64,000 bases of DNA, taken from positions 25,766,067 to 25,830,066 of the forward strand of contig JARWKL010000010.1 of assembly GCA_029961685.1 (NCBI GenBank), written 5' to 3'. This document shows positions 15,083 through 61,348 of the stretch, piece by piece. The DNA is from Aristolochia californica. Taxonomy: Eukaryota; Streptophyta; Magnoliopsida; Piperales; Aristolochiaceae. Every line of letters starts with the position of its first letter. The first letter of the stretch is position 1. The translations under genes and the position numbers were made by a program. Under the pieces are notes generated by a model. The model worked only from the letters and a program-made list of their open reading frames with translations. It was not told the DNA's origin and did no database searches.

Positions 15083-15386
15083 TGTTATGGACCCCATAGC
15101 AAGGTTTAATTAATGCATTTTCCAGTTTATGTATTAGAAGGGTTTTTATTATAATTTCCTTAAGACTTGTGGCCTTCAGTTTAGGCCTTTGTGTGTATGT
15201 GTTCTCTAATCCTTTTATAGGGAGGTTGGGCTGTGTAAGAGAGCAAACATTAATTCAATTAGTTGTTAAAAGGGTTGGATTCTCCCTTTTGAGGTCTAGG
15301 GTTGAGCTCCCTTCGAAGGCTCAAAACCTCACAACGAATCTTCACCTTCATCTTCTTCTTTACCGTGTTAGATCCTGGGCATAACA
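15083..15386 (+). repeat. 5' LTR of E1
   Basis: A 304-base segment from TGTTATGGACCCC to GGGCATAACA. Its last bases, GTGTTAGATCCTGGGCATAA, closely match the end of the E3 LTR. It contains a TTTTATAGGGAGGTTGG promoter-like stretch near 15213. Confidence 0.7.
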
Positions 15387-15388
15387 AC

Positions 15389-15403
15389 TGGTATTAGAGC
15401 GGG
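15389..15403 (+). other. Primer binding site of E1
   Basis: TGGTATTAGAGCGGG, two bases after the LTR end. It matches the 3' end of initiator tRNA-Met with one mismatch (TATTAG for TATCAG). The same variant is used by E3. Confidence 0.75.
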
Positions 15404-16398
15404 AACACAAAGAGCCATGAAGAATGGATGGAGTTGCGTAGAGAAGTATCCCCAGAAGAATGGAGGTCGATGTCCTTAGAAATGGCAAAAGCGATAGTGA
15501 GGGCACCTCTCTTCAATGGAGGGGAAAGAATGCAGGAATGGCGTACCGCTTACATAAAAACATTTTGGGCAAGTAAGCAACTCGCTCTGTCTCTCCAGTG
15601 GATTTGTTCTGGCTCTGTCTTGGATGGCGGGCGATGCAAAAAATCAGCAAGCGCTCTGTATCTCCAGCGACGGCGACATACGAAGTTGGAAATTCAGAAA
15701 TTCCAAAAAAGGAACGATATTCAGCACACCCTTCTTCAAAAAATCCTATTTTGCATTCAAGTTCGAAAAACCCTTTCTCACGGGAGGTAATACAAATCTG
15801 AACAGGAGAAATTCCGAAATCATCGGCATTGGACAATTTGGGTGCGACCTCAAATCCGGATGGACAACGATGCCTTGCTTCAGAAAAATCCAAGATTTCC
15901 ACGCAAGGAATTCCAAGGCCGAACCGTGGTGACAAAGATTTGGACCATGCTTCACAAAAAATCATGATTTCCACACAAGAAAATCCAAAGCCGAACGGCG
16001 ATGATGATTTGGGGAAATCGGAGGGGTATGCTAAGCAGGGAACTCCAGCGACGGGCTAGACCAAATTGATTTCCAGTTCATGGATATCAGACGAGCAATA
16101 CTTTGCACATCAGAAATCGCAGTCGTTCTCAAATCCGAAATTGGCCTCCACTCTTCTGAAATCAGACAGCGGGAACTCCAAATTTGGGACATCGAAAGGG
16201 TATTCTGAGCCTTCTGTCTTGGAAAATCCCCAAGTGGCAAAGCCCCAAAGGGCTTCCCTTCGCCACTGGACACGGAGGAGGTTTTGTTGGTGCCGTCGGA
16301 ACCAAGTCCGGTGGGATGTGACTCCCGGCCAACACGTCCCACTCGCAATCCACTTCTCGGTAGACCAGAGAGAACCCAAGTTCCAAATTGGGTGGGGG
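15404..16398 (+). pseudogene. Gag-like remnant of E1
   Basis: An open but repeatedly interrupted region in which about 15830-16240 reads LDNLGATSNPDGQ, then a duplicated ISTQGIPRPN / ISTQENPKPN motif and other N/K/S/P-rich sequence. E3 has LELDDLGGTSNPKS at the equivalent place, and both share a GGGAAAT..GGA...AACTCCAGC stretch. I do not recognise a named domain. Position after the primer site suggests a degenerate gag N-terminus, which is inference. It ends at a GGGGGGTAAGTATC site. Confidence 0.45.
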
Positions 16399-16404
16399 GT
16401 AAGT
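16396..16404 (+). promoter_or_regulatory. Splice-donor-like site in E1
   Basis: GGGGTAAGT matches the plant 5' splice-site consensus (G|GTAAGT). The identical nine bases occur at the same relative place in E3 (57596-57604). If used, transcripts would join the gag-like leader to the captured cargo. Confidence 0.45.
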
Positions 16405-17090
16405 ATCTGCAACCTCAATTTTGCGTTGAAAATTTCAGAAAGTTAGGAAATTTCGTGAAGTTATTTGATAAAGCGTCTCAATTTTTTTTTTTTTTTGAGT
16501 GGCTTTGTTTTTCTGTGGAGGAGCACCGTAATTGTGCGAATGTGAGTTGTCCAATTGACATTGTGGGGTTTAATTTTCTGGATCCCATGCATGTTGTTCA
16601 GCCACAAAAGTTTTTTTGGAGGTTGTTTTCTTTCTATACGGTTGAGACCAGCAACCTTGCACCTCTTTAAATTTCTGTTGCACCCGGGGATGCAAGACCT
16701 ATTTCATATTCTTTGCTGAAGGGAGATAGAATTCTTTTGGGTAGTCAATTTGACAACGGGGTGCTGACATTTTTTTTTGTGGAGGAATTATATCCATTTT
16801 GCTGGGACGAATTATTTAGTTGTGGATGGACACTGCATCAATGTGGTTGTTTCTGGTCATTGTTCCAGTAGTAACAATCCCTTGAAAACAAATGTGTTCA
16901 TTTTTTTGAATGAATTGTATGATGCTTATCCACTGTTAGTCAAAATTATTCAACCAGTGCCTGTTGGTGATAAACTTTTGTTGGGTATCCAGAGCAGGGT
17001 TGAGGTAATTATGTGGATGAATTTTTTTTCTATTGATGGGACCAGCAGTAGTGAGTTTGTTCTGGATCTACTTGACAATGTTGTGCTTAA
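16405..17090 (+). other. Intron-like tract shared with E3, plus short unknown piece
   Basis: T-rich sequence. About 16800-16957 aligns with 57840-57958 of E3, sharing TGAAAAC...TGTTCATTTTTTTG, GTATGATG and a common end TTCAACCAG (16949-16957). The homology stops there. 16958-17090 is an unrecognised short coding-like piece (reading PVGDKLLLGIQSRVEV) in frame with the beta-galactosidase that follows. Confidence 0.5.
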
Positions 17091-17284
17091 TTCATGGCTG
17101 CATCAAATGCCTGGTATGGTGCTTAGAACAGACAGTGAAATGGTCAAGAACGAAATGCAAAACTTCACCACTTTGATAGTGGACATGATGAAGCAAGAAT
17201 AGCTATTTGCTTCACAAGTTGGTCCCATCATTCTCGCTCCTATTGAGAACGACTACGGAAATGTTCAGAAATACTACGAAGAAG

Positions 17285-17678
17285 TGTTAGGATCCTCACG
17301 AGCCATGGATCTTGTCACCCTCCTCTCTTCTCTTCCTTCTATTGCCTTGCTTGACGTAGAAATAGATTGATGGAGTGATGTAAGAAGAAATTCGGAAAGG
17401 GGAATTGGGGAAAAGGGGGGAGAGCTTGAAGGATCTCTCGACCTGTTATCTAAATTACTCTAGGCTAATTTACTAATTCAATCACCGCCTTTCATTAACC
17501 TAGCCGTCCCCTTAAATAGGGTTGAGGATGCCAATTGCACTTCAGACCCTTGGGTCACTAGTTCAAGCCAAATAAATTTTAAATCAAACCAAACCAAAAT
17601 CAATTACATGAAAACTGAAAACCACATTAATTAATTCCTACACTGCTGGTAACACGTGTTGCTATTGAGTCCATAACA
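17285..17678 (-). repeat. 3' LTR of gypsy D
   Basis: A 394-base terminal repeat. The pol stop codon lies inside it (about 17627), as in gypsy A. Confidence 0.85.
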
Positions 17679-18788
17679 TCACCCCTCTCCTGGAGAAAGA
17701 GCTTGTCCTCAAGCTCGAAGGAAGGGTAGAGAAGTCGAAATGCTGGTAATGGCTCCCATGTAGTGTCACTGGGGTCTGGATCTACCCATTGTACGAAAAT
17801 TTCCCAATCGCCTTGAATGTGGCGTGCCTGCAATACCTGAGCTAGAGTAGAAAGGACACGACCCTCATGGAGTGGTGGCAGAAGGGTGTTCAGCAAGGGA
17901 GAGTCACCGTAAAATGACTTCAGTTGGGATACGTGAAATACATTATGTATCTTTGCCTCGGGTGGTAGCTGCAAGCGGTAGGCCACGGTGCCAATGCGGT
18001 CCAACACCTGAAATGGACCATAATATTGTGGAGAAAGCTTGTGGCGCTTGGAGGCTGTTAGTGAAAGCTGCCGGTAGTGTTGGAGTTTTAACCACACATA
18101 ATTTCCCGGGGAATAATATACCTCTCGGTGCTTCTTTTCATAATAGAACTTCATAGAGTGTTGGGCCTCCTGGAGATGAGTACGCACCTCAGTGAGTATA
18201 GCGTCTCTTTCAGCTAATGCTTGGTCCAAAGTAGCAACTTTGGATGTCCCTGGTTCATAGGATAACAAACGAGGTGGATCTCTGCCATAAACTACTCTAA
18301 AAGGAGTAGTTCCCAGTGCATTGTGGTAAGAGGTGTTATAGCAAAATTATGCCCAGGAAGGCCACTTAACCCACCGTTTAGGTGAGTCCCCCACAAAACA
18401 GCAAAGATACATTTTGATCGTGCGATTGATGACCTCGGTTTGTCCGTTAGTCTGTGGATGATAGGCAGAAGAGAATGCCAATTGGGTGTCATGTAACTTG
18501 AATAAATCTTTCCAAAAGGTACTGGTAAAAATGGCATCCCTGTCACTGATAATAGATGCTGGAATCCCGTGTAATCGAACAATGTGGTCAATAAATAACT
18601 GAGCTACATGAGCAGCAATATATGGATGCGCCAAAGAAATGAAGTGACCATATTTTGAAAAACGGTCAATCACAACTAATATCATGGATTTACCTGATGA
18701 AGTTGGAAGGCCATCAATCAAATCCATGGAAATGTCGGACCAGATTTGAGACAGAAGCTGTAGAGGTTGTAGTAGGCAGGCAGGATCA
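17627..18788 (-). pseudogene. Gypsy D pol fragment (integrase and chromodomain end)
   Basis: The minus-strand frame begins in the integrase core at SQIWSDISMDLIDGLP and continues with VVIDRFSKYGHF, SDRDAIFTSTFWKDLF and YHPQTNGQTEVINRTI (DDE catalytic residues visible). After a frameshift near 18340 it ends with KLSPQYYGPFQVLDRIG, a chromodomain-like WEIFVQWVDPDPSDTTWE and FELEDKLFLQERGDVMDS. Reverse transcriptase, protease and RNase H are missing. Confidence 0.88.
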
Positions 18789-18895
18789 GTTTTCATGTCA
18801 TTGATTTTGGTTTGATTTTTGGTTTGGTTTGGTTTAAAATTTATTTGGTTTGAACCAGTGACCCAAGGGTCTGAAGTGTAATTGGCGTGAAGTGT
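18789..18895 (+). repeat. Inverted LTR fragment inside gypsy D
   Basis: This segment is the reverse complement of LTR sequence at about 19370-19460 (for example GACCCAAGGGTCTGAAGTG here versus CACTTCAGACCCTTGGGTC there). It sits exactly between the pol fragment and the gag fragment, replacing the missing middle of the element. Confidence 0.8.
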
Positions 18896-19190
18896 GGGTG
18901 GTTTGCTGCTGGTGGCTGAGAGTTTGTAGCTGGTGGTGGTGTGGTTGATTGAAGTTGTGCAAGCTGACGGATGATGGTTTGGAGAGAAGATTCTACCGTG
19001 TGCAATGTATTATGGATGTTTGTAATTTCAGCACCTTGATGCGTGGACCTTTGTTGAAGATCTGAAAGCACTTGACGTATGTCCTCGGGAGAAGAGGAGT
19101 CACCGAGGGTGGACTTGTCTAATACCACATTGTTAGGATCCTCTCGAGCCATGGATCTTGTCACCCTCCTCTCTTCTCTTCCTTCCATTG
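18896..19190 (-). pseudogene. Gypsy D gag N-terminus, starting in the LTR
   Basis: The minus-strand frame starts MEGREERRVTRSMARED within the 5' LTR (ATG near 19188), crosses the LTR edge and primer site (NNVVLDKS) and continues with TLGDSSSPEDIRQVLSDLQQ. The same start layout exists in gypsy B and, with a shorter N-terminus, in gypsy A. It is truncated after about 120 residues. Confidence 0.8.
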
Positions 19191-19537
19191 CCTTGCTTGA
19201 CGTAGAAATAGATTGATGGAGTGATGTAAGAAGAAATTCGGAAAGGGGAATTGGGGAAAAGGGGGGAGAGCTTGAAGGAGCTCTCAACCTGTTATCTAAA
19301 TTACTCTAAGCTAATTTACTAATTCAATCGCTGCCTTTCATTAACCTAGTCGTCTCCTTAATTAGGGTTGAGGACGCCAATTACACTTCAGACCCTTGGG
19401 TCACTGGTTCAAGCCAAATAAATTGTAAACCAAACCAAACCAAAAATCAAACCAAAATCAATTACATGAAAACTGAAAACCACATTAATTAATTCCTACG
19501 CTTGCGGGTAACACATGATGCTATTGAGTCCATAAAA
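19131..19537 (-). repeat. 5' LTR of gypsy D
   Basis: A 407-base terminal repeat paired with 17285-17678. Its outer end is CATAAAA instead of CATAACA. The adjoining primer site reads TGGTATTAGAC on the minus strand. Confidence 0.85.
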
Positions 19538-20543
19538 AGAAGTTGGGACGAAGTATCTTCAGTGGTGTGCATCCATGGCTGATTCATTCAATATAGGCAT
19601 CCCATGGATTATGTGCCAACAAGTAGATGCTCCTGTTCCAATGATCAACACTTGCAATGGATGGTATTGTGACAATTTCACTCCGATGATGTGGACTGAG
19701 AATTGGACTGGCTGGTTCAAGGCTTGAGGAGAGAATGACCCACACATGAGGGCGACAGATGTAGCCTTCGTTGTGGCAAGGTTTTTCCAGACTGGTGGAG
19801 TCTTCCAAAACTATTACATGTACCATAGTGGCACAAACTTTGGGCGAACAACAGGAGGTCCATATATCTCCACATCCTTGGACTATGATGCACCCCTTGA
19901 TGAATACGGTCACTTGAATCAGCCTAAATGGGGTCACTTGAAGCAACTTCATGTAGTCCTCACGTCTAGGGAGAGAGTTCTCACTCACAGTGATAATGTA
20001 ACCGCTGACAGGGGCAATGGAGTTGCTGCTACTGTGTCCACTGAAGAAGGTTCTTGTGCTGCTTTCTTGTGCAATGTGAACACCACAACTGATCCCACCA
20101 TCACTTTCCATGGAAACCAATACTTGGTACCTGCATGGTCTGTTTGCATTTTGCCCGATTGCTCCGCAGAAGTATACAACACAACAAAGGTAAGCACTCT
20201 GACTTCAGTGAAGGTCCAGTAGCCTAACATGGCTACGGATCAGCCTAAGCAATTGAGGTGCGTGTGGAGACCTGAACGTCTAGTTGAGGTTCTTAAAGAC
20301 TGGGCAGATCATGATTCTTTCACTGCATCTCATCTAATTGACCAAATCACAGTCACCGGAGATGCCAGTGACTACTTGTGGTACATGACTCCTGTACGGA
20401 TTGAAAAGAGCAATCCAATCTTCAACAACGAAGTGACACTGAGGGTGACCTCCAGTGGACATGTCTTGCATGCATTCTTGAATGGAAAATTTGTTGGCTC
20501 CCAGTATGGACCTGCGTATGGAAAATACAAATTTGTTTTCTAG

Positions 20544-21150
20544 GCCCAAATGTTATTGCTGGAAATGGCATGTCGGGGGATGAGCTTGGAAGAATTCCTG
20601 CACGGGCAAGGAAGGAGAAAAGTCTGAAGGGTTCTTTTGCAAATGTTGTTGCAACTCCCATGGAAGTTTCTCCAGCAATATCTGTAAAGAAGAGTAAGAG
20701 GGAAGTAGAGGCAGCACTTGAGAAACAAGTTACTGCCAAAATGTAGAAACGAGAAGTAGAGGCTAAAAAGAAGTTGTGCCTAAAAAGAAGCAAGATACAA
20801 GCAACTTAGAGGATAGTTTGTATGAATCCGAAGAAGAGGAGGTTGTTGCTCAAGCTGCTCTTCTTTCAAAGAAACCATCCTCTGTTGTCTCCAAAAATGG
20901 ATCTGCTGGAAACTTGAAGAAAGCAAAACCATCTAGCAGCTCCGAATCTGAGATTGATTCTGATGATGATGAAGTTCCTGCAACTAAGGTTAGTAAGCCA
21001 GCAGCTAAGGCTAATGGGCATGTTACTGTTTCCTGGTGTAGCAACTGGAGGGGGTCAATGCTGCTGAGTCTACTCCTTCCCAGGGGGCTGGTCATGATGT
21101 TGTTGCTGCCATGCTGGCAATGGGTAGGCAATGCAACTTTGCCAATGGGA
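20544..21150 (+). pseudogene. Captured nucleolin-like cDNA fragment
   Basis: After the beta-galactosidase part, one frame reads SVKKSKREVEAALEKQVTAK. After a stop and frameshift near 20745-20780 it continues VPKKKQDTSNLEDS, LYESEEEEVVAQAALLSKKP and SSSSESEIDSDDDEVPATK, ending KPAAKANGHVTV near 21030. Alternating lysine-rich and acidic Ser/Glu/Asp stretches with a KREVE...KKxK motif are typical of the N-terminal acidic domain of plant nucleolins. The RNA-binding domains are not present. The family call rests on composition and is tentative. It is broken and lacks both ends. Confidence 0.5.
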
Positions 21151-21440
21151 GGGGGTGTAGAGGTTCAGAGAAGGGAGAGAGGTTGAATGCTCTATCCCAA
21201 GCCAAGGGCCTCTATTTATAGTTTTTGAGAGGATGTTACAATGTCCAGAATGCCCTTAGGGCTACAAACTTTACATAAGAAAAGACATAAGTAGACATGT
21301 TCATCCTTATGCCATCTTTATGAGAAATCTTCTTATTTACCATGATGCCACCTCTCTTGAACGTGTGGGACAAGACTTGAGCTCATCTTTCACCCACTTG
21401 GACATGTGGGTCTTCCTTGGTCGTGTCGTCTTGGGCCCAT
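21151..21440 (-). repeat. N1-type LTR fragment
   Basis: Homologous to 13600-13860: both contain AAGCCAAGGGCCTCTATTTA, TTTTTGAGAGGATGTTA and ACATAAGTAGACATGTTC. It marks the point where element E1 is broken off. Confidence 0.65.
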
Positions 21441-22580: not shown

Positions 22581-22601
22581 TGTTAGGAATTAGATGCCCT
22601 A

Positions 22602-22975
22602 TGTTAGGCTCTCTAGCCATGGATCGAGTCACCCGGCGATCTCCTCTAGCTTCCAGATTGAATGATGAGGAAGGGAAGGATTTGGGGTTCTTGGAACGCC
22701 CAATGGTGAAGGACGTGAGCCTTGAAAGGAGCTCTCACGTTAGGCCTCTTTTGAGAGAGAACCTGATCTCATTTAGACTAATACTCAATGCTTATCTTCA
22801 TTACTTCACTTGACGCCCTAAATAGGTCAAGGAAAACATCAAAGGTTCTATAATTACAATTAGACCCTTATGGAACTTATAATTACAATTAAACCCCTAA
22901 GATATTGAAATACAAGTTTACTCCATCTATTCTCTTCTCCGGTTAGCCACTCTTGATGCTATGGAGTCCATAACA
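22602..22975 (-). repeat. 3' LTR of gypsy A
   Basis: 374 bases, TGTTAGGCTCTC...GTCCATAACA in plus orientation, indistinguishable from the 5' LTR. The last codons of gag-pol and its stop lie inside it. Confidence 0.93.
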
Positions 22976-25900
22976 TCACCCCCCTCCTGAAGAAAGAGCT
23001 TGTCCTCAAGCTCGAAAGTGGGAAATAGAGTCTGGAAGGACTCGAGGGTCTCCCAAGAGGCTTCTATCAATTCCTTGTCAGTCCACCGAACCAACACTTC
23101 CCAAGCGTTGTTAACTCGCCTGGCTTGAAGGATCTGAGCAGGCGTGGGCATGGACCTGCCATCTTTGAGAGGAGGCAAAGGGGTATGCAGCAGTGGTGAG
23201 TCTCCCTTGAACGGCTTGAGAAGGGAGACGTGGAAGACGTCATGGAGCTTGGCGTCTGGTGGTAGTTTCAAACGATACGCCACAGTGCCAATACGTTGCG
23301 TGATCTGGAATGGCCCATAAAATTTTGGAGAGAGCTTATGGCGTTTGATGGCTGCTAGAGAAAGTTGGCGATATGGCTGAAGTTTGAGCCAAACAAATTC
23401 TCCAGGTGCAAAGGTAAGGGGACGGTGTCCTTTGTCATAAGTATGCTTCATAGTTGCTTGTGCACGTTGTAACTGAAGGCGGACTTGAGCAAGCATTGCA
23501 TCTCTGTCGGCCAAGGCCTGGTCCAATGCTTCTACCCGAGAAGACCCCGTTTCATAAGAAAGTAGTCGCGGAGGTTCGCGTCCATAAACAACTTGAAAAG
23601 GGGTAGTACCCAAGGCGGTGTGGTATGAGGTATTATAACAATACTCCGCCCATGCTAACCAACGAACCCACAGTCGGGGCGTGTCCCCCACAAAGCACCG
23701 CAAATACATACCCAAGGTGCGGTTAACCACCTCTGTCTGGCCGTCTGTTTGAGGGTGGTATGCTGAAGAAAAAGCTAACTTAGAACCATGGAGCTTAAAG
23801 AGTTCCCCCCAGAATTTACTGGTGAAGATAGCATCACGGTCGCTGGTGATGGTCTCCGGAAGGCCATGGAGACGGACAATATTATCCATGAAGAGCTGAG
23901 CGACCTGTGTGGCTGTATACGGATGGCTGAGGGCCATAAAGTGGGCATATTTGGAGAACCGGTCTACCACAACAAAAATAACAGATTTCCCTGCAGAAGG
24001 AGGAAGACCATCGATAAAATCCATTGATAGATCTGCCCATACCTGTGAAGGAAGTGGAAGTGGCTGGAGCAAGCCGGCTGGTTGTAAGGATTCTGACTTA
24101 TTCCTCTGACAGATCTGGCACGCTGCAACATACTCCACAATGACCCGCTTCATACCGCTCCAATAAAATTCCCGACTGAGGCGGAAGTATGTTTTCTGCT
24201 GGCCCTCATGTGTACTATCATGAAAGGAGGCAATAATGGCAGGAATGAGTACCGACGAAGGATGAAGATATATGCGTCCTTTATACAGAATGAGACCGTC
24301 CTGTAGTGTCCAGTTCTTGTCCTTGGAATGGTTTGCGATTTGAGCTTGTAACTCAAGGAGATCTGGATGATGGCTAGTATCCTGACGGATTGTGTCCAGC
24401 AAGGGCGACTTGGGGTGGCTCAATGCGTGCAAGTGTGACTCCTCTAGTGCCCGGCGTGACAAAGCGTCTGCTGCCCTGTTGAGATAACCCGGTTTGTATT
24501 CCACCTGAAAATCGAATCCCATTAATTTGCTGAGCCAATGTTGTTGTGGGGAGGTAGTAAGGCGCTGCTCCAATAAATATTTGAGGCTACAGTGGTCTGT
24601 CCGGATCACAAAAGGTCTGCCCCACAGATACGGCCTCCAATGCTGCACCGCTTTGGCCAAACCGATAAGTTCCCTTTCATACGTGGCTAACTTGTGATGG
24701 TGAGGAGCGAGATGGCGGCTGAAATAGGCAATAGGGTGACCCTGTTGCTGCAAGACGGCACCAATCCCTCCCCCGGATGCATCGCATTCTATAATGAAAT
24801 GTTCGGCAAAGTTGGGCAATTGGAGAACTGGTGCTGACGCTAATGCCTGTTTTAAGTTGTTAAATGAGGAGTCTGCCAACTGAGACCACTGAAAGGCATG
24901 TTTCTTCAGTAAATTATGCAATGGTGCTGCTAGGTGACCGTAGTCTTTGATAAATTTTCTATAATACCCTGCGAGACCAAGGAACCCTTTCAAAGCAGTA
25001 ACGGTGTGAGGTGTGGGCCAATCCATCACCGATTGTATCTTGCTGAAGTCTGGTTTCACCCCGGATGCTGATATCACATGCCCCAAATAAGCTACTTCGG
25101 ATGTGGCAAAGTCACATTTGGCACGATTGAGAAATAAATGGTGTGCTCGGAGAATGGTGAAAACCTGTCTCAATTGATGCAAGTGTGCTGCCCAAGTTTT
25201 GCTATAGACCAGTATATCGTCAAAAAAAACTAAGACATGCTTCCGTAAGAAAGGGCGAAATACCTGGTTCATAAGCGCTTGAAAGGTGGACGGGGCATTG
25301 GATAGCCCAAATGGCATCACCAAGAACTCGTAGTGACCATGGTGGGTGCGGAAGGCAGTTTTTTCGATATCCTCTGAATAAACCCGAATCTGATGGTAGC
25401 CTGATTTTAAGTCCAACTTTGTAAATAATTGAGAGCCGTGTAACTCATCCAATAATTCATCGACCACTGGAATTGGAAATTTATCTTTGATGGTGCGAGC
25501 ATTGAGGTCACGGTAATCCACACAAAAGCGCCAAGATTTATCTGATTTCTTTACCAGCAATACCGGGGATGAAAAAGGAGAACGACTAGGCTGAATAATA
25601 CCTTGTTGTAGCATTTGTTGACATTGACGTTCTATCTCATCTTTTTGCACATGGGGATAGCGGTAGGGACGCACTACCACTGGTTCTGTGCCCATCTTCA
25701 AACGAATTCTGTGATCACACACTCTGATAGGAGGAAGGTCGGTAGGTGCCTGAAATAAATCAGCATATTCGGCCAACAATGAAGCTAAGTTATCCCCTTT
25801 TGAAGTATCCACCGAAAGTGTGTGGAGGCTGCATGGCCTCTGGGCGCTATTGCCATGGAGGGTGATCGGATGGGTGTCCTGGTTAAAACTCATGGTCAGG

Positions 25901-27357
25901 GATTGGAAATCCCATAAGATCGGACCCAATCGCTGTAGCCATTTAATGCCCACGACAAGGTCAAACCCAGCCAACGGTATGACCAAAAAATCTGCTACAA
26001 AGGAGTGACCTTCAATAGTAAAGGGCACTGCTGAACCGAACCCCACGGTGGTGACCTTGTCACCATTAGCCACTGAGACTGATATGCCTGATTTCTGCTG
26101 TAGTGATAAACCCAACTGTTGTGCTGCCTGGCTGCTTATAAAATTATGTGTGCTGCCTGAGTCCACGAGTGCTAGCAGAATATGATGTTTCAAGGTGGCA
26201 TGGACCTGCATGGTATTTGTGCTATGCAGGCCGGTCATGGCATGGAGGGAGATTTCTGGTGTTTCCTCCTCGGTTTGGTCCATATCCTCCTGAAAGTCAT
26301 CCTCTGAGGGGTCTTCTATTTCTACCCAAAATAGTCTTTTGCATAGATGGCCCTTGACGAATTTCTCATCACAATTGAAACATAGGCCTTGAGCCCTCCT
26401 CTGATCAATTTCGGCTTTTGTCAGACGTTTGATAAAACCAGGTGGGGGTGTAAAGGCTGGTGGTGGTGGTGATGGTTGGGTGGGAGGAGGCCTGGGGTGA
26501 GTGGGATAAGGGCCATGGGGCTGTGGGCGAGGTTGCCAAGGAGGACGTTTGTTTAAGGACTCACGGAAGAGGCGCTGTTTGGTGTCCAATGCTCTTGCCA
26601 AATTCATTGCGTGGGCTAGGGAGGTGGGGGCTTCCAATTCCACTTCTAGGCGAAGGGGTTCGACCAGGCCAGCCGTGAACAAATTGACATAAAGTTCAGG
26701 TCGGACCAAATGACTTGCCCGAGCAAGTTTTTCTTGGAACAATTTCTGATATTGTTCTATAGTTCCACTCTGTTTTAGATTGACCAAATCCCCAACTGGG
26801 TTGCTGCGAAGCGGAGGACCAAACCGTAGCATACAATTTTCTTTGAAAAATTCCCAATCATAGACCATGAATTCGTTTTTGAATTGATGAAACCACATAA
26901 GCGCTTCATCGAGCATGTGGAAGGCGGCCAATTGAACCTTGCCTTCGGGCAGAGTTCCTTGATTGGAAAAGAAATGATCACACCTGTGCAACCACATTAA
27001 AGGGTCGGAGGACCCATCATACGTTGGAAAATCAAGCTTTGTGTACCTTGGCACGGTAGGAGGGGCTGGATTGAGGCCCCCACGAGGTTGAGGTGTTTGG
27101 CGCAGGGGAGGAGGTGGAGGTGTTGGAAGAGGGTTGAGGGGATCTGCTGGACGTGAGGAGGATGCCATCTGGACTGAGAGCTGGGTGAAGCCTTCCTCCA
27201 TGCGTGACAGCAACATCTGGAATTTTCCCTCCAAGCCATTGATTTGAGATTGTAGACCAGCATGGTTTTCTTCCACAAAATTTCGAATTTCTGCAGGTGA
27301 AGAGGAATCACCAAGGGTGGTCCTGTCTGATACCACGTTGTTAGGCTCTCTAGCCAT
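22927..27357 (-). CDS. Gypsy A gag-pol polyprotein (intact)
   Basis: Encodes gag, protease, reverse transcriptase, RNase H and integrase as one chain of 1476 residues from the first in-frame ATG (27357), which lies inside the 5' LTR. The open frame extends four codons further to a GTG. Landmarks, counted from that ATG: gag core RYTKLDFPTYDG near 105; CCHC knuckle CFNCDEKFVKGHLC near 325; protease LVDSGSTHNF near 400; RT with catalytic FFDDILVYS near 710; RNase H ECDASGGGIGAVL near 855 and TDHCSLKYLL near 925; integrase zinc finger H-x-H/C-x2-C near 1045-1085; DDE core with DRFSKYAHF, TSDRDAIFTS and TDGQTEVVNRTL near 1125-1210; chromodomain-like WEVLVRWTDKELIEASWE near 1415. The frame reads through the primer site (NNVVSDR) and ends about 16 codons inside the 3' LTR. 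All catalytic residues seen are intact, and gag and pol need no frameshift. Confidence 0.95.
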   Translation of the reverse strand: MAREPNNVVSDRTTLGDSSSPAEIRNFVEENHAGLQSQINGLEGKFQMLLSRMEEGFTQLSVQMASSSRPADPLNPLPTPPPPPLRQTPQPRGGLNPAPPTVPRYTKLDFPTYDGSSDPLMWLHRCDHFFSNQGTLPEGKVQLAAFHMLDEALMWFHQFKNEFMVYDWEFFKENCMLRFGPPLRSNPVGDLVNLKQSGTIEQYQKLFQEKLARASHLVRPELYVNLFTAGLVEPLRLEVELEAPTSLAHAMNLARALDTKQRLFRESLNKRPPWQPRPQPHGPYPTHPRPPPTQPSPPPPAFTPPPGFIKRLTKAEIDQRRAQGLCFNCDEKFVKGHLCKRLFWVEIEDPSEDDFQEDMDQTEEETPEISLHAMTGLHSTNTMQVHATLKHHILLALVDSGSTHNFISSQAAQQLGLSLQQKSGISVSVANGDKVTTVGFGSAVPFTIEGHSFVADFLVIPLAGFDLVVGIKWLQRLGPILWDFQSLTMSFNQDTHPITLHGNSAQRPCSLHTLSVDTSKGDNLASLLAEYADLFQAPTDLPPIRVCDHRIRLKMGTEPVVVRPYRYPHVQKDEIERQCQQMLQQGIIQPSRSPFSSPVLLVKKSDKSWRFCVDYRDLNARTIKDKFPIPVVDELLDELHGSQLFTKLDLKSGYHQIRVYSEDIEKTAFRTHHGHYEFLVMPFGLSNAPSTFQALMNQVFRPFLRKHVLVFFDDILVYSKTWAAHLHQLRQVFTILRAHHLFLNRAKCDFATSEVAYLGHVISASGVKPDFSKIQSVMDWPTPHTVTALKGFLGLAGYYRKFIKDYGHLAAPLHNLLKKHAFQWSQLADSSFNNLKQALASAPVLQLPNFAEHFIIECDASGGGIGAVLQQQGHPIAYFSRHLAPHHHKLATYERELIGLAKAVQHWRPYLWGRPFVIRTDHCSLKYLLEQRLTTSPQQHWLSKLMGFDFQVEYKPGYLNRAADALSRRALEESHLHALSHPKSPLLDTIRQDTSHHPDLLELQAQIANHSKDKNWTLQDGLILYKGRIYLHPSSVLIPAIIASFHDSTHEGQQKTYFRLSREFYWSGMKRVIVEYVAACQICQRNKSESLQPAGLLQPLPLPSQVWADLSMDFIDGLPPSAGKSVIFVVVDRFSKYAHFMALSHPYTATQVAQLFMDNIVRLHGLPETITSDRDAIFTSKFWGELFKLHGSKLAFSSAYHPQTDGQTEVVNRTLGMYLRCFVGDTPRLWVRWLAWAEYCYNTSYHTALGTTPFQVVYGREPPRLLSYETGSSRVEALDQALADRDAMLAQVRLQLQRAQATMKHTYDKGHRPLTFAPGEFVWLKLQPYRQLSLAAIKRHKLSPKFYGPFQITQRIGTVAYRLKLPPDAKLHDVFHVSLLKPFKGDSPLLHTPLPPLKDGRSMPTPAQILQARRVNNAWEVLVRWTDKELIEASWETLESFQTLFPTFELEDKLFLQEGGDVMDSIASRVANRRRE
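27322..27335 (-). other. Primer binding site of gypsy A
   Basis: TGGTATCAGACAGG on the minus strand, three bases from the LTR edge. The first ten bases fit initiator tRNA-Met. It is also coding sequence (VVSDR) in the gag-pol frame. Confidence 0.85.
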
Positions 27358-27712
27358 GGATCGAGTCACCCGGCGATCTCCTCTAGCTTCCAGATTGAAT
27401 GATGAGGAAGGGAAGGATTTGGGGTTCTTGGAACGCCCAATGGTGAAGGACGTGAGCCTTGAAAGGAGCTCTCACGTTAGGCCTCTTTTGAGAGAGAACC
27501 TGATCTCATTTAGACTAATACTCAATGCTTATCTTCATTACTTCACTTGACGCCCTAAATAGGTCAAGGAAAACATCAAAGGTTCTATAATTACAATTAG
27601 ACCCTTATGGAACTTATAATTACAATTAAACCCCTAAGATATTGAAATACAAGTTTACTCCATCTATTCTCTTCTCCGGTTAGCCACTCTTGATGCTATG
27701 GAGTCCATAACA
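27339..27712 (-). repeat. 5' LTR of gypsy A
   Basis: 374 bases, paired with 22602-22975. It contains the gag-pol start codon 19-21 bases from its inner end. Confidence 0.93.
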
Positions 27713-27717
27713 CCCTA

Positions 27718-29700: not shown

Positions 29701-29734
29701 TTAGAATTACAAGAATGTCTACTACCATCTTAGA

Positions 29735-30850: not shown

Positions 30851-30852
30851 AG

Positions 30853-50990: not shown

Positions 50991-50999
50991 TTATTTGTG

Positions 51000-51530: not shown

Positions 51531-51534
51531 CTAT

Positions 51535-51947: not shown

Positions 51948-51982
51948 AGTGGTATAAGAGCTTTGGTTTGTGATTGAAAGCA

Positions 51983-55660: not shown

Positions 55661-55731
55661 CTCTGAGGATTAAGAAGTTGTTGCCACTGTAGTGGAGATA
55701 TTGATGATGGTTTAGTCTCCAATTGGGAGAT

Positions 55732-56137
55732 TGTTAAGTTTTGGACCCTAATCAATGCCCTACACTGAGTCGGTGCGTGATATATTAACTGTTGTTTCAT
55801 TTAGGACAGTTTGGGAATTTCACTCTTGTATCGCAGTTTCCTTACTTTTCTCTTTATATTTAGGGTGCCACTATTAGGGTTTTATCACAATCTGAGGAGC
55901 ATTAGTTGCGGCCGAGAGAGGTTAGAGAAAAACAACACCTATAAGTGTGTGCAATCTCTCTTCTAAACTATGTCATCTTCATAGTGGATTACTGCAACGA
56001 CGGAATACAGGACGTAGTCTCACCTTGAGGTGAACCTGTATAAATCTTATTGTGTTTTTTCCGTGTTTCTTTTCCTTCTTCCGCGATTATTATTGTTGTT
56101 CTCGTTAGTTTGGAATTAGGGCGTCTAATTCCTAACA
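55732..56137 (+). repeat. 3' LTR of the Tnt1-like copia
   Basis: 406 bases, paired with 51535-51947. The same LTR family is found inverted at 22581/27718 and 46579. Confidence 0.88.
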
Positions 56138-56141
56138 TCTA

Positions 56142-56581
56142 CCACCACTAGGGTGCAACACTTTGTATTTAAGCTTAGGGTGTGAGTAGGTCCAAATAAA
56201 CCCATGTGAATTAGTTGAAGTTGTCGAGAGGTGGAGACTAAATTTTTGGCTTTGAATGAATTTTTGTTTTGTTTTCCAAGCTAGTAGGCATCACAAGCTT
56301 TCTCCCTTAAAAATTTATGATTTGGTAGTCCTCTCACTAGGCTTTTCTTTACTAATTTGTTTATGGAATTTATTCCTATATGTCCTACCCTTTGGTGCCA
56401 TAACCAAGACTCATCAATGTTTGCTCCTAAATAAATAGCACTTGTTATAGGTAAGTCAATTATGTTCATAACAAAGAGATTTTTATTTCTATGTTAATCT
56501 AGAACTAGTTCATCATTCTCATTTTTTACTAAGCATTTATCTTTTTAAGTAATACTTTATTTTCTTTATCACAAAATTGAC
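56142..56581 (-). pseudogene. Copia GAG-pre-integrase piece
   Basis: Minus-strand frame 56469-56281 reads NIIDLPITSAIYLGANIDES, then LWHQRVGHIGINSINKLVKK and a C-terminal CDAY, the conserved GAG-pre-integrase LWHxRxGH pattern. Upstream on the same strand VSISQFCDKENKVLLKKINA runs to the E3 insertion. Confidence 0.85.
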
Positions 56582-56586
56582 TAATG

Positions 56587-56927
56587 TGTTATGCATGCAA
56601 TAACATTATTAAGCTATTTAGAGTCTAATTAATTGTTTTTTAGTTTAATTTATTTAATTTCAGTTAAAGAATTAATAGGACACATGGGTATTTTTGTAAT
56701 ATTTTAATTTTAACCTTGTATGGGTGAACCCTATCTAAGGGATAAGAATAATGAGAAAAAACAAGTATTGATTTAGTGTAAACAAGGGTTTTGAGTTATC
56801 CTCAACGAGCTCAGGGGTGTGCGTTCTCCTCAAATAACCTAGGGTTTTCAAACTTTTCTTTGGCTTGATTTTTGTCTTTCTCTTCTTCCTCCCTACGAAT
56901 CGTCGTGTTAGATCTAGGACCATAACA
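56587..56927 (+). repeat. 5' LTR of E3
   Basis: 341 bases, TGTTATGCATGCAATAACA...GACCATAACA. The final GTTAGATCTAGGACCATAA resembles the E1 LTR end. Confidence 0.9.
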
Positions 56928-56929
56928 AC

Positions 56930-56943
56930 TGGTATTAGAGCGA
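56930..56943 (+). other. Primer binding site of E3
   Basis: TGGTATTAGAGCGA, two bases after the LTR. Same one-mismatch initiator tRNA-Met site and AC spacer as E1. Confidence 0.8.
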
Positions 56944-56951
56944 GAACACAA

Positions 56952-57598
56952 TGATGGATTCTTCAACCCTAGAAGAAATACTCGCCATACTCTAGGATTT
57001 ACACACAACAGCAGGTAAGATGTATCAAGATGTGCGCACCCTAATATGTGAGATGCGTCAATCTTCCATTAAAATGTTAGAGGAATGGTCTGCAATTGAG
57101 AGGCATCTCGTTGCCGCAAAAAAGAAGTTCATACGACCTAAAATCTTCAAGCAAGAAAAATTCACAAAACGCAAAGTAGTAGACGTTGTCTCGGACGGGA
57201 AAAAAGGCCTCGGGCCAAAAAAATTCACAATTTTCGTGTAGGGAAATTCGGAGTAGAACTCCAGCAGCAGGGACCCTGCAAATCCAAAATCGGAGTCTAA
57301 AACCTCAAATCCAAAATCTTCCAAAACCTCGTTGGAACTAGACGATTTGGGTGGGACCTCAAATCCAAAGTCGGCGTCTGTTGTAGAGGAACCAAGAGGC
57401 TTGTTCATAATTCAACCCTAAGGTTCTTCGGACTAGACCTATTCTAAATTTTGGCCATGATGTCCTGTTGTTCGCCATCGGAAAAGGGTGAGGCTCCATA
57501 AAAAAAAAACCGTTGGACTTTAGCTTCATAACGACACTTCTCCCTCTCACTCTCGGTCTCGGCAACCCAGCGGGAAACCAACCTCAACACATTTTGGG
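56952..57598 (+). pseudogene. Gag-like remnant of E3
   Basis: It starts MMDSSTLEEILAIL, then after a stop YQDVRTLICEMRQSSIKMLE and ERHLVAAKKKFIRPK (57020-57240), then LELDDLGGTSNPKS near 57330, which matches E1. The coiled-coil-like start and basic middle fit a gag N-terminus in position, but no knuckle or named domain is present. Interrupted by stops. It ends at GGGGTAAGT (57596-57604). Confidence 0.5.
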
Positions 57599-57604
57599 GT
57601 AAGT
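57596..57604 (+). promoter_or_regulatory. Splice-donor-like site in E3
   Basis: GGGGTAAGT, identical to E1 16396-16404. The matching acceptor would be TTCTTGTCAATTCTTCAACCAG ending at 57958: a pyrimidine-rich stretch and CAG directly before the captured PPR frame. Confidence 0.5.
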
Positions 57605-57958
57605 TTTTGAAACGCTACCGATTTTTATGTCAAAACGCATCTTCCATGGGGTTGATGGGGCTCAAATGGTCTGAGCAATAGCAACACTGCTCGAATTTTG
57701 GGGCTGGGAGTTTTCTATTCCGTGAAGTAGAGAAACAAAACCAATTTGAAGGAATTCCGGTTTTTGCATCTGAATGGAGATATGGGATTTTTTTGGAGAT
57801 TCCGGGAATGCTCAAAAAATTTCTTGGGGTAATTTGTTTTTTTGTTGATGCGAACAGTACCTGTGTGTCTGTTCTTTGTCAAATTGAAAACGTTGTGCTT
57901 CATTTTTTGGGTGATATGTATGTTGGTCGGCCATAGTTCTTGTCAATTCTTCAACCAG
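57605..57958 (+). other. Intron-like tract of E3, shared with E1
   Basis: T-rich, non-coding. From about 57840 it aligns with E1 16800-16957 and ends at the same TTCAACCAG. Sequence similarity between the two elements stops abruptly at this point. Confidence 0.5.
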
Positions 57959-59490
57959 GGGCATTTGAGGATGCTTTTAAACTCTTTAAGCGACTGCCTT
58001 AGTTGTGCCTAGTTGCTAGTTCTGTTACTTATTGTACAATAATTGATGGGTGTCTTAAACTAGGAGGGATTAGTGAGGCACTTGAGATATTTGATGAGTA
58101 CAAAAAGACTTCGCTGGGATCTTCTGGTGCTACTGGCTATAACTTCATCATTGGAGTGCTCTGCAGAGAAGGCAAGGTGGAAATGGCAGTTGCCCTATTT
58201 TTTGAACTCAGAAAAAATGGGTTGCCATTGCATGATTTTATTTATATGAAATTGATGGATGTCAAGTTTAATGAAGGTGGTGAAGAGGGTATCTTCGAGT
58301 TGCTTTCTGGATTGAACAATTAGATTCTAAGAAACTTGGTTTGTTGTATAATGATGCTATTAGTTTTTTATGCAAGAAAGGTTGTCATTATGTAGCTTCT
58401 AATGTTTACTTTGTAATGAGGATAAGAGGCATACTTGTGACAACTAGTTCCTACTATTTAATCCTCAAACGTTTTATCCACCTTGGAAATCTTGAGCAAG
58501 TTCAACTGATGTTAACTTCATATTTAAAAGAATATGGTATTCTTGATCCTATAATAAACAAGCTTCTAGTTCATTACATGTGCAAACAAAACATAAATGG
58601 AGCTCTCCAGCTTCTAAATTATAGGGGTGAGGTGAGGGAAGTTTAAGCGCCCTAACAACAATCTTGTATGCACTTACCAGGCAAGGGAGAGCTCAACTTG
58701 CTCATGAGTTTGTCTTGGACGCTGAAGAAATGGGAATGGTTTTGGATGTTGTTGTCTACTCTGTTGTGGTTGATGGGCTTTATAAAGAAGGATGTCTGAA
58801 AGAGGCTTTAGATCTCTGTGAGAGGATGAGAGCCAAGGGTGTCCATCCCAATATAGTTACTTATAATTCAGTGATTAGTGGTTTGTGCCATGAGGGATGT
58901 CCGGTGTAAGCATTTAGGCTATTTGATTCATTAGAGAAAATTAATGTTCTTCCCTCTGTTGCTACATATTCAACTTTGATAGACCTACAAGATGCAAATG
59001 AATTATATAAAAGAATGGTTCTCAAGGGTTTGATTCCAAATACATGTGTCTACAACTCATTAATCAATGGTAACTACAATTACGGATTAATTGAGCAAGC
59101 ACTTGATCTTGTTATTCACATGGAAGAAAGTGGCCAAATACCTGATGCCTCCACAATTAGTTTTGTGCTTGGTGGTTATTCTGTCAAAGGTGACATGGAA
59201 ACTACACTTTTATTTTTTGGTGAATGCTGAAGCCGGGCAATTTTACCTGACTTTTTGGGTTTTCTTACTTTGGTGAGGGGACTGTTTACTAAGGGTAGAA
59301 TGGAAGAAGCCAGAACCATTATGAAAGATATGCTCCAAAGTCCATCAATAGCAGAGTTTATAGATAAATCAGGGAATGAGATTGAAATAAAGTCACTAAC
59401 CCATTTTCTCGATGGTTTAGCAGATCGTGGAATTATTCTCAAGGCAATCAATGTTCTTGATGAAGTGGGCTCTATGGTTTTCCCTAGGAG
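57959..59490 (+). pseudogene. Captured PPR-protein gene fragment (P class)
   Basis: It begins in frame after CAACCAG with GAFEDAFKLFKRLP and then successive 35-residue P-type pentatricopeptide repeats: SVTYCTIIDGCLKLGGISEA, ATGYNFIIGVLCREGKVEMA, DVVVYSVVVDGLYKEGCLKE, NIVTYNSVISGLCHEG, NTCVYNSLINGNYNYGLIEQ. The end reads FLGFLTLVRGLFTKGRMEEA and INVLDEVGSMVFP. From memory of that protein, the C-terminal part resembles Arabidopsis At5g57250-type PPR proteins (organelle RNA binding), a tentative assignment. N-terminus and C-terminus are missing. Stops near 58321, 58645, 58907 and 59227, and frameshifts, show it is dead. Confidence 0.88.
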
Positions 59491-59864
59491 GAGGCCTCAA
59501 GCTAGTTGTGGCCCTGCAAAGATGAAAAAAACACAGCATATGGGGAATCAGGAGAGTAAAGAAGCACAATACACTGGAAGAAATGTGGAGAATAGGATTT
59601 CTATGCTTAGCAGTTTGGTTTTTCTGGAAATGGTGGAGAATATATTGCAGGGAATGATTTTTATGACTGTTGAAGGGAAAAAAATTAAACCCTGGGTGGA
59701 GTCTAGATAGAGTATAAGTGCTGCAGTTTTGCATGGGCATATTAATTTTTCGTTTGATCCATGACCATCAAATTCCAGTGGTGCAAAAGACTTAGAAAAC
59801 AAAAATATGCTGAGAATAGCTCCTAGAGAGCGACTTGCTGCAATTGCAGTTTTAATTCATACAT
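59491..59864 (+). other. Unrecognised cargo segment of E3
   Basis: An open frame continues to 59710 (KKTQHMGNQESKEAQYT...) without a pattern I can name. It may be the decayed 3' end of the PPR transcript. 59711-59864 shows nothing. Confidence 0.4.
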
Positions 59865-59898
59865 GGGTCCATAGCTCAGTGGTAGAGCACAGACTGAC
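59865..59898 (+). pseudogene. 5' half of a tRNA gene (tRNA-Cys-like)
   Basis: GGGTCCATAGCTCAGTGGTA followed by GAGCA matches the acceptor 5' strand, D-arm and A box of plant tRNA-Cys(GCA). The anticodon arm and 3' half do not follow, so no functional tRNA is encoded. It sits between the PPR and thiolase cargo. Confidence 0.6.
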
Positions 59899-60155
59899 CG
59901 AACGTGTTCACAACCATCTGAAGGACGGTGCTGAGGACAGCTTGTGCATACGCTCATGGGTTCTTCAACAAATTTTTTTGTGCTGCTGCTGTGGCACTGC
60001 AACAACTAGTGTTGACAACAGTGGCACTGCTGAAAACAGTGCTGCCAAACAGCATAGAAAACAGAGCTGTTGTGACAGTGCAAAAACCAGTGCTGAAAAC
60101 AGTGGTAGTGTAGCATGAAACAGATGACGTTGCTGGTTTTCCAGCCCATGTTGGC
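59899..60155 (+). other. Cargo linker with ACAGTG-rich microrepeat
   Basis: Between 59995 and 60110 the words ACAGTGGC, ACAGTGCTG and ACTGCTGAAAACAG recur many times in no fixed period. No protein or RNA gene recognised. Confidence 0.4.
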
Positions 60156-60810
60156 ATGCGGATTTTCAGGATGCAATCATTCTATGCTGGTTTTATAGAA
60201 ACGGTGCTATTCAGAACTGTGAAACAGCAAGGTTCTTCTAGCCTTCAGATTGTTACCGCTGTTGCTGTAGCTATACAAGCTGGTTTCAATGACATAGGAC
60301 TTGGAGCTGGATTATATTTGATGCCTGAACATCCTATGGCATGGGAAGGCTTCATACACCCTAAGATAAAGAATTTCCAACAAGCTCCAGATTTTCTTCC
60401 TCTGTGTATTACTTCTGAATATGTTCCTCATCGAATTGGTGTCACCAGGCAGAAGCAAGACCCCACTCCTGTTCTGTCCCATAAGCAAGCTGCTACAACA
60501 ACTGCATCAGTGGCTACAAAGATCATTGACACTAAAAATCAGGAGGAGAAAAATGTTGTGCTTTCTGTGGAAGATGGTTGCTGACATAATGCAATTGGGT
60601 CTGACCGGGCTTAGCTGCAGACTGTTTTCAAGAAGGATGGCACGGCCACTGCTAGTAACTCGAACCAAGAATTTTACTGCTGTTGGTGTGGACCCTTCTA
60701 TAATGGGCATAGGTCCACCTATTGCAATTTCTATTGCAGTGAAGGCGTTGTATGAGGAAGTAGTTCCTGCATTCGATGTCATGGTACTTAACCGTATTGG
60801 GGTGTGCTAC
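60156..60810 (+). pseudogene. Captured 3-ketoacyl-CoA thiolase cDNA fragment
   Basis: The frame reads QQGSSSLQIVTAVAVAIQAG, FNDIGLGAGLYLM, NPMAWEG-like HPMAWEGFIHPKI, ITSEYVPHRIGVTRQKQD and HKQAATTTASVATKIID, then after a stop near 60582 VFKKDGTATAS-like sequence and, in another frame, AVGVDPSIMGIGPPIAISIA. This is the order in plant peroxisomal thiolases (KAT2/PED1 type, fatty-acid beta-oxidation). The nucleophile cysteine of the NRQCSSGLQ motif is replaced by glycine (KQQGSSSLQ). These genes are intron-rich in plants, but no intron interrupts these blocks. N- and C-terminal parts are missing. Confidence 0.88.
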
Positions 60811-60869
60811 AATAAGTGATGCTAGTAGTTTCTTTTTTTTTAAAAATAAAATTTACTACTCCCATGGAA

Positions 60870-60990
60870 TGCTTCAGTTTTGTCATCTAGAGGGCTGGCA
60901 CAGATCCCACGGATGCTACTTGGGAAGAGTGGAGACGTCGGCAAGGGCATGTAGACCCTACCTTCGAGCTTGAGGATAAACTCTTTCTCC
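60870..60990 (+). pseudogene. Gypsy pol C-terminus retained in E3
   Basis: One frame gives GTDPTDATWEEWRRRQGHV, then DPTFELEDKLFLPGG, directly before the polypurine tract. Compare SDTTWE...FELEDKLFL at the same place in gypsy B and D. It shows that E3's ancestor was a chromodomain-bearing gypsy element. Confidence 0.8.
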
Positions 60991-61004
60991 CAGGGGGGGT
61001 GTAA

Positions 61005-61348
61005 TGTTATGCACACAATAACATTATTAAGTTATTTAGAGTCTAATTAATTATTTTTCTTTAATTCACTTTATTTTATTTTAGTTAAAAAATTAATTGG
61101 CCACATAGGCATTTTTGTAATATTTTATTTTGAACCTTGTAAGGGTGAACCCTATTTAAGGGGTAAGAGTAATGAGAAAATGCAAGTATTGACTTACCGT
61201 AAACAAGGGTTTTGAGTTCTCCTCAACAAGCTCAGGGGTGTGCGTTCTCCTCAAAGAACCTAGGGTTTTCAAGCTTCCCTTCAGCTTGATTTTCGTCCTT
61301 CTCTTCTTCCTCCCTACGAATCGCCGTGTCAGATCCGGGACCATAACA
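61005..61348 (+). repeat. 3' LTR of E3
   Basis: 344 bases, paired with 56587-56927 with scattered substitutions. Confidence 0.9.

What the first reader, a model, noticed from the sequence alone, without database searches (positions are those of the whole stretch)
15083..61348. Two insertions share one 5' module but carry different host genes
E1 (15083-21150) and E3 (56587-61348) share LTR ends, the TGGTATTAGAGC primer site with an AC spacer, a gag-like remnant (LDNLGATSNP / LDDLGGTSNP), GGGGTAAGT, and a homologous tract ending TTCAACCAG (16957 and 57958). Downstream they are unrelated: beta-galactosidase plus nucleolin-like versus PPR plus tRNA plus thiolase. The pattern suggests an LTR family that repeatedly acquires host transcripts at a fixed point. 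Known single cases of gene capture by plant LTR elements exist (for example maize Bs1). A conserved acceptance point would be new.
Basis: partly seen in the sequence, partly recalled or inferred. Interest (0 to 1): 0.9.

Follow-up and report, generated by a model that had tools for sequence, protein, structure and literature searches.

The report
Jumping gene family collecting host genes
A family of defective retrotransposons in a wild plant has picked up spliced copies of many different host genes behind one shared front end, usually in the same reading frame, but not at one fixed point.

Summary
The shared 5' module is real. E1 and E3 belong to a large non-autonomous LTR-retrotransposon family in (by inference) Aristolochia californica. 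Within the E1 subfamily cargo is fixed: 20 of 20 fetched copies carry the same beta-galactosidase piece. Across subfamilies one scaffold carries different host cDNAs behind its repeat: beta-galactosidase, xylulokinase, GH3 glucosidase, PRMT4, several PPRs and probably a spinster-type transporter; thiolase, PRMT4, nucleolin-like and ketoacyl-synthase pieces sit further on. Loci holding PRMT4 and beta-galactosidase as separated exon-like pieces exist in the same genome, so spliced RNA was captured. The 'fixed acceptance point' fails: cargo starts range from inside the repeat to about 350 bp past CAACCAG. What is conserved is reading frame: 19 of 24 scored loci, and all eight assessable cargo classes in at least one copy. 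No E1 3' LTR and no tRNA were found; a nested gypsy element splits E1. Best reading: Bs1-like transduction done serially by one family, a new variant of a known kind. Against functional selection, cargo dN/dS is only mildly below 1.

The parts
15083..15387 (+). E1 5' LTR (TGTTATGG...GCATAACA)
   Evidence: LTR pairs in sister copies
15389..15400 (+). E1 primer binding site TGGTATTAGAGC
15401..16396 (+). E1 leader with gag-like remnant (LDNLGATSNP)
   Evidence: first leader ORF no Pfam match
16397..17092 (+). E1 coding repeat tract, shared with E3
17093..17284 (+). beta-galactosidase (GH35) cDNA, first part; in frame with tract in sister copies
17285..19535 (-). nested, internally deleted gypsy element with LTR pair 92%, absent from the 19 sister copies that retain the site
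19536..20540 (+). beta-galactosidase cDNA, second part (end approximate)
20590..21155 (+). nucleolin-like segment (limits approximate, identity by resemblance); sister copies stop matching after ~21155, E1 3' LTR not found
   Evidence: no Pfam match
56582..56586 (.). E3 target-site duplication TAATG (second copy 61349-61353)
56587..56927 (+). E3 5' LTR
56930..56941 (+). E3 primer binding site TGGTATTAGAGC
56942..57596 (+). E3 leader with gag-like remnant (LDDLGGTSNP)
57597..57958 (+). E3 coding repeat tract, many copies genome-wide
57959..59573 (+). PPR cargo (first slot)
59574..60113 (+). middle scaffold, shared with copies that lack the PPR
60114..60780 (+). thiolase-like cargo (second slot; limits approximate)
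   Evidence: Thiolase_N E 1.8e-9
60781..61004 (+). 3' scaffold: A-rich run, gypsy-pol-end-like tail, polypurine tract
61005..61348 (+). E3 3' LTR

Best explanation
E1 and E3 are members of one non-autonomous, gypsy-related LTR retrotransposon family that acts as a serial gene vector. A common scaffold (LTR, PBS, leader, a lineage-specific tandem-repeat ORF, a middle spacer, a 3' tail with a pol-end remnant, PPT, LTR) has no reverse transcriptase that I recognised and is presumably moved in trans by an autonomous gypsy relative (inferred). At least eight different host-gene cDNAs are seen directly behind the repeat in different copies (shown). For two of them intron-bearing loci exist in the same genome, so spliced RNA was captured (shown); the route is most simply template switching during reverse transcription, in separate events (inferred). 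Chimeras then amplified as subfamilies with fixed cargo (shown for beta-galactosidase and xylulokinase), and recombination between copies reshuffled ends and cargo (supported by mosaics). The captures seen are mostly in frame with the repeat ORF, so the fusion was probably translated when the copies amplified (inferred).
For: Same scaffold, different cargo. Cargo identity: GH35, PPR, thiolase, xylulose kinase, GH3 exoglucanase, CARM1/PRMT4, ketoacyl-synthase C, further PPRs. LTR-bounded with 5-bp TSD: E3, 8 of 20 E1-family copies by script, L069 AACAA and L070 TCTAG. RNA origin: PRMT4 is one 300-aa stretch without stops in L070 but 7 and 8 separated pieces in two other loci; beta-galactosidase is one 397-aa stretch in the best element copies but 6 pieces at C329:4520917-4522502. 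Fixed cargo in a subfamily: 20 of 20 E1-module copies share the beta-galactosidase; six xylulokinase copies share one mid-exon junction. Frame: 19 of 24 scored loci; PRMT4 joined in frame at two different points (read by eye). Mosaics: L069 and L072 share second-half cargo but differ in the first; L019-L028 share E1 internal sequence with E3-like LTRs. Recent activity: LTR identity up to 99%.
Against: dN/dS among E1-family copies is 0.62-0.79 in the beta-galactosidase part, 0.70-1.07 in the tract and 1.11-1.32 in the nucleolin-like part, so lasting selection for the fused protein is weak or absent. 19 of 20 copies mapped carry stops or frameshifts against the reference copy L023. 5 of 24 scored loci are out of frame. 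Template switching was not observed; the junction sequence was compared with a donor only for xylulokinase and is not decisive. Xylulokinase has a second junction type: 29 of 57 matches start at query residues 57-59, behind an unidentified piece where read. Copies were found through the tract or module, so captures elsewhere would be missed. 15 of 40 sampled loci show scaffold and no identified first cargo, 7 of 40 were not identified (my classification). The transporter rests on a weak match (best E 0.011; no Pfam hit) and recall. L072 has no clean TSD. The A-rich run before the 3' tail is clear in L069, L070, L023 and L026 but poor in E3 and L072.
Confidence: 0.85

Rival explanations
1. Fixed acceptance point: the element has a specific nucleotide site (CAACCAG) at which host transcripts are joined, for example a splice acceptor or a recombination signal.
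For: E3 and L041 join PPR directly after CAACCAG, and many copies stop matching E3 at 57957-57959.
Against: Those copies stop matching because E3 carries the PPR there; in most of them the scaffold continues past the motif. Junctions of other cargos lie from inside the repeat to about 350 bp downstream. The xylulokinase junction of six copies lies inside an exon, so splicing did not make it.
Confidence: 0.04
2. One ancestral element captured a long series of cDNAs once; today's subfamilies are different deletion derivatives.
For: Second-half cargo is shared between L069 and L072. PPR, transporter, xylulokinase and PRMT4 pieces start at several points, as deletions would give. Some copies carry two first-slot pieces, e.g. 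L074 PPR then transporter, L057 and L076 an unidentified piece then xylulokinase.
Against: The ancestor would need at least eight cDNAs in a row. PRMT4 lies in the second slot in L070 but directly after the repeat in L084-L086. In the six elements read in full or nearly so (E3, L023, L069-L072) I recognised at most three cargos each.
Confidence: 0.12
3. Cargos are ordinary retropseudogenes or nested insertions (LINE-mediated) that landed in LTR elements after the fact.
For: Spliced, intronless cargo and an A-rich run before the 3' tail also fit LINE retrocopies.
Against: Cargo is amplified with the element and mostly joined in frame. Every cargo I recognised is in sense; minus-strand ORFs of 120 aa or more in seven elements numbered 13, and the 7 of these that were scanned had no Pfam match. 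The short loci were translated on the sense strand only.
Confidence: 0.05
4. Frame agreement is chance or identification bias, and the cargo is neutral stuffer between cis-acting ends.
For: dN/dS near 1; most copies have stops and frameshifts; only about eight classes are independent, and one in-frame copy per class was enough.
Against: Cargo was looked for in all three forward frames. All eight assessable first-slot classes have an in-frame copy, about 1.5e-4 if each were one third (the any-copy rule inflates this). Five copies keep frames of 618-895 aa without a stop across all 397 beta-galactosidase residues.
Confidence: 0.25

Closest known systems
Bs1 of maize (gene-transducing LTR element)
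   Same: LTR element carrying pieces of several cellular genes fused into a chimeric ORF (passages of PMC13317346: plasma membrane ATPase, xylan endohydrolase, beta-1,3-glucanase).
   Different: Here one family shows at least eight different first cargos plus a second slot, in an unrelated plant, and the cargo is fused to a tandem-repeat ORF without recognised relatives.
LTR-carried retroduplicated genes of pepper (NLRs)
   Same: Spliced genes inside mostly non-autonomous LTR elements; two or three genes in one element were seen (passages of PMC5664825).
   Different: The passages stress capture of one gene class; here one element family carries many unrelated gene classes.
Gene fragments in maize B73 LTR retrotransposons
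   Same: 425 intact elements with gene fragments, from at least 189 independent captures (passages of PMC2774510).
   Different: That survey reported no single element with fragments of more than one standard nuclear gene; E3, L069 and L070 here carry two or more.
LTR-captured genes of rice and sorghum
   Same: Hundreds of captured genes inside full-length LTR elements (passages of PMC3726574).
   Different: The passages seen do not report serial capture by one scaffold or frame conservation.

Membership tests
Bs1-type transducing LTR retrotransposon (works like) | LTR pair with PBS, PPT and 5-bp target-site duplication | tested here: met
   E3, L069, L070 and 8 of 20 E1-family copies for the TSD; window E1 fails for the 3' LTR; L072 lacks a clean TSD; L071 has only a partial 3' LTR
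Bs1-type transducing LTR retrotransposon (works like) | spliced segments of more than one cellular gene | tested here: met
   L070: GH3 and PRMT4; intron loss shown for PRMT4 and for beta-galactosidase of the E1 family, not sought for the others; E3: PPR and thiolase
Bs1-type transducing LTR retrotransposon (works like) | element ORF fused to cellular segment in one chimeric ORF | tested here: met
   5 of 24 scored loci out of frame
Bs1 family proper (sequence relationship) | sequence homology to maize Bs1 | not tested
   no Bs1 sequence was compared; membership is not claimed
Ty3/gypsy LTR retrotransposon | RT-RNaseH-integrase order in pol | tested here: inconclusive
   no RT or integrase domain in the element ORFs scanned; not every ORF of every element was scanned
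Ty3/gypsy LTR retrotransposon | gypsy-type end of pol next to PPT and 3' LTR | tested here: met
   69-bp 84% match of E3 60955-61023 to the end of the nested gypsy element, whose pol carries SH3_Tf2-1 and Integrase_p58_C; short, so relationship only
TRIM / LARD / TR-GAG non-autonomous LTR elements | no coding capacity (TRIM, LARD) or gag only (TR-GAG); definitions recalled | tested here: not met
   long chimeric ORFs, up to 895 aa

The most novel reading that the evidence does not exclude
The tandem-repeat ORF is a dedicated fusion partner: this family is an open-reading-frame trap that keeps only captured host cDNAs continuing its own frame. The fused tail would serve the element (for example RNA stability by avoiding nonsense-mediated decay, or cis-recruitment to particles), so the family would keep renewing its coding capacity from the host transcriptome.
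Probability: 0.3. Interest if true: 0.88.

Novelty: new variant of a known kind. Interest (0 to 1): 0.72.

Why it matters
Gene capture by plant LTR elements is usually inferred from isolated cases or bulk counts. A single family with a common scaffold, many different cargos, intron-bearing donor-type loci in the same genome and copies of different ages gives a natural series for asking how capture happens, where junctions form, and whether the fused ORF matters. It also has a practical side: database records call E1-family ORFs 'beta-galactosidase 15-like' of Aristolochia californica, so such chimeras are being listed as host genes.

Tried and rejected
Fixed acceptance point at CAACCAG: rejected by junction positions. 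An intron between GGGGTAAGT and TTCAACCAG: considered because of the splice-like ends; E3 and E1 keep homologous coding sequence inside the region, and in E1 and other copies an open frame runs across CAACCAG, so it was dropped without RNA data. The second E1 repeat match is significant as DNA but not as protein (score 41 against a shuffle maximum of 47). tRNA in E3: none. Relatives of the tract: none at E<=1 (545 candidates); the 120 hits covered only 21-50% of the query, consistent with its xylulokinase part; both searches need shared 5-residue words. Pfam and NCBIfam gave nothing for leader, tract and several cargo pieces. PDB gave nothing for a first transporter piece. Selection test: weak. 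A blastp script printed no alignment and was replaced. A mosaic reading of the L032 repeat was considered and dropped, since its matches to E1 and E3 are equally good. Literature: one search returned 0 papers; some searches were seen as listings with abstract starts, one search gave the assembly paper. Donor genes for PPR, GH3 and thiolase were not sought.
Full report
The window lies at G000:C2:25766067-25830066 of a genome of 659,574,684 bases in 521 contigs. Database proteins matching the E1 family are named beta-galactosidase 15-like of Aristolochia californica, one on a contig of 48,413,878 bases, the length of C221. The published assembly of that species has 531 scaffolds, 661.6 Mb and scaffold N50 42,251,748 (passages of PMC11334207); 42,251,748 is the length of C489. 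Contig number and total differ slightly, so the species is inferred, strongly. It is a wild magnoliid vine.

Observation. The local similarity of the tracts clearly exceeds 400 dinucleotide shuffles, but its structure is more complex than stated. E1 16491-16604 matches E3 57820-57933, E1 16976-17092 matches E3 57788-57904, and E1 16882-16971 matches E3 57884-57972. The first match is coding in the same frame on both sides (protein scores 70 for E1 and 93 for sister copy L023, shuffle maxima 45 and 48; the second match is not significant as protein). I read the tract as a coding repeat present in different numbers of units. Beta-galactosidase in E1 starts at 17092-17095, where the second match ends, not at 16957.

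E1. No 3' LTR was found. The beta-galactosidase is interrupted by a minus-strand gypsy element, absent from the 19 sister copies that retain the site. The E1 module, searched without cargo, gave 62 matches (40 of 1184 candidates scored). Twenty copies were fetched; all 20 carry beta-galactosidase sequence, and 19 of 20 (not L010) reach the nucleolin-like segment within the fetched DNA. Eight of the 20 show an LTR pair with a 5-bp TSD by script (L009, L010, L013, L014, L022, L023, L027, L028), and LTR identity reaches 99%, about 0.4 My at 1.3e-8 per site per year (rate from a passage of PMC5664825). Ten copies (L019-L028) share the internal part from about 16207 on but not the E1 LTR and leader, except a weak 61% leader match in L025; all ten have matches of 59-74% to the E3 LTR or leader. 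So cargo and ends have been recombined.

E3. The insertion is complete (TSD TAATG, LTR 87.8%; about 5 My). Its module gave 63 matches (40 of 768 candidates scored) and the end of the tract alone 43 (40 of 464). I fetched short stretches downstream of the tract for 40 copies from these two lists. My classification from BLAST and translations: E3-type PPR 6; xylulokinase 3, plus 1 after an unidentified piece; GH3 2; spinster-like transporter 5; another PPR 1; scaffold reaching the E3 59557-59959 region without an identified first cargo 15; unidentified 7. Five more tract loci gave one scaffold continuation, one third PPR followed by the transporter piece, one PPR with a weak E+ motif match, one unidentified piece then xylulokinase, and one E3-type PPR. 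A tract search from another copy (40 of 446 candidates scored) placed xylulokinase within 700 bp downstream in 14 and PRMT4 in 3 of 40 loci, by comparing coordinates. These samples overlap in part and are selected by similarity to the query.

Identity and completeness. L070 is an LTR element with TSD TCTAG. Its repeat ORF runs into a GH3 exoglucanase (PDB ExoI, E 3e-40), and a second cargo is CARM1/PRMT4 (E 2e-77). L069 (TSD AACAA, LTR 92%) carries xylulokinase (PDB 4bc2 E 1.4e-16; FGGY_N; named plant xylulose kinases among the hits, e.g. 70% to Turnera subulata), a ketoacyl-synthase piece (E 4.2e-5) and a sub-threshold PPR match. L072 carries the transporter piece (best PDB matches are spinster proteins, E 0.011 to 0.22) and shares second-half cargo with L069 (read from the translations). 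L071 carries the second PPR and has only a partial 3' LTR. The PBS is in E1, E3, L069, L070 and, with one change, L072; E3, L069, L070, L072 and the two E1-family copies compared share a 3' tail.

RNA origin. PRMT4 in L070 is a 300-aa stretch without stops. Two other loci, C221:13143227-13167070 and C111:42675727-42693087, hold it in 7 and 8 separated pieces, as an intron-containing gene would. Beta-galactosidase is uninterrupted over 397 aa in the best E1-family copies and lies in six pieces at C329:4520917-4522502 with 73-87% identity. A locus matching xylulokinase without the tract (L078) shows an intron-like AG boundary upstream; the element junction lies inside that exon and is the same in six copies. 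A second xylulokinase junction type exists: 29 of 57 matches start at query residues 57-59. Capture of spliced RNA is therefore shown for two cargos; template switching is the inferred route.

Frame. Of 24 loci scored by script, 19 have the cargo in frame with the nearest repeat anchor and 5 do not (L031, L051, L057, L059, L064). Five further rows had no recognised anchor and were not scored (E1, E3, L023, L026, L054); four rows (L069-L072) repeat loci already counted. Without the seven scaffold-type 'LFDEMP' rows it is 15 in, 2 out. Read by eye: L023 and L026 in frame by their continuous ORFs, L054, the E+ PPR of L075 with one stop between, PRMT4 in L084 and L085 and, at a different junction and before a later frameshift, in L086. 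L074 could not be assessed. The window's E3 copy has a stop inside its tract, while L041 with the same PPR junction is open there. Eight first-slot classes (beta-galactosidase, E3-type PPR, xylulokinase, GH3, transporter, second PPR, E+ PPR, PRMT4) thus each have an in-frame copy: five by script, three by eye. By chance this would be about 1.5e-4, with the caveat that one in-frame copy per class was enough. Against functional selection, dN/dS among copies is 0.62-0.79 for beta-galactosidase and 1.11-1.32 for the nucleolin-like part.

Comparison. Bs1 of maize is the nearest case in working principle (passages of PMC13317346). Surveys in maize, pepper, rice and sorghum (passages of PMC2774510, PMC5664825, PMC3726574) show capture is common. 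The maize survey reported no element with more than one standard nuclear gene; the pepper study saw two or three genes in single elements. In the listings (one search found none) and the passages of these four papers I saw no description of one scaffold serially acquiring many unrelated cDNAs with frame conservation. Most papers of subscription journals are not in that library.

Verdict. The fixed point is wrong. The frame regularity is the more interesting clue and needs an unbiased, larger test.

Noticed in passing
window 22602-27712: Very young gypsy element, minus strand: 374-bp LTRs 100% identical, TSD CCCTA, one 1514-aa open frame. A possible relative of the autonomous partner; not tested.
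   Followed up: no
P0122-P0124: Public protein records named 'beta-galactosidase 15-like' of Aristolochia californica match ORFs of E1-family retroelements; P0122 is 100% identical over the fused nucleolin-like part.
   Followed up: partly
G000:C511:26611709-26616669: Two E1-family cargo copies 3.8 kb apart with identical scores, perhaps a tandem duplication of the element.
   Followed up: no
L028 1-1044 and 5154-9901: A sequence repeated many times, mostly 80-87% alike, on both sides of an E1-family element: insertion into a satellite-like array.
   Followed up: no
window 13639-13863 and 21164-21371: An 83% direct repeat of LTR-like sequence on both sides of E1; not a clean pair around an outer element, but the right-hand piece begins where the E1 match ends.
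   Followed up: partly
L036, L057, L076, L087, L088: An unidentified coding piece (like QHLEYVENENESQGASIAHENQGHAAV) follows the repeat; in L057, L076, L087 and L088 xylulokinase comes next.
   Followed up: no
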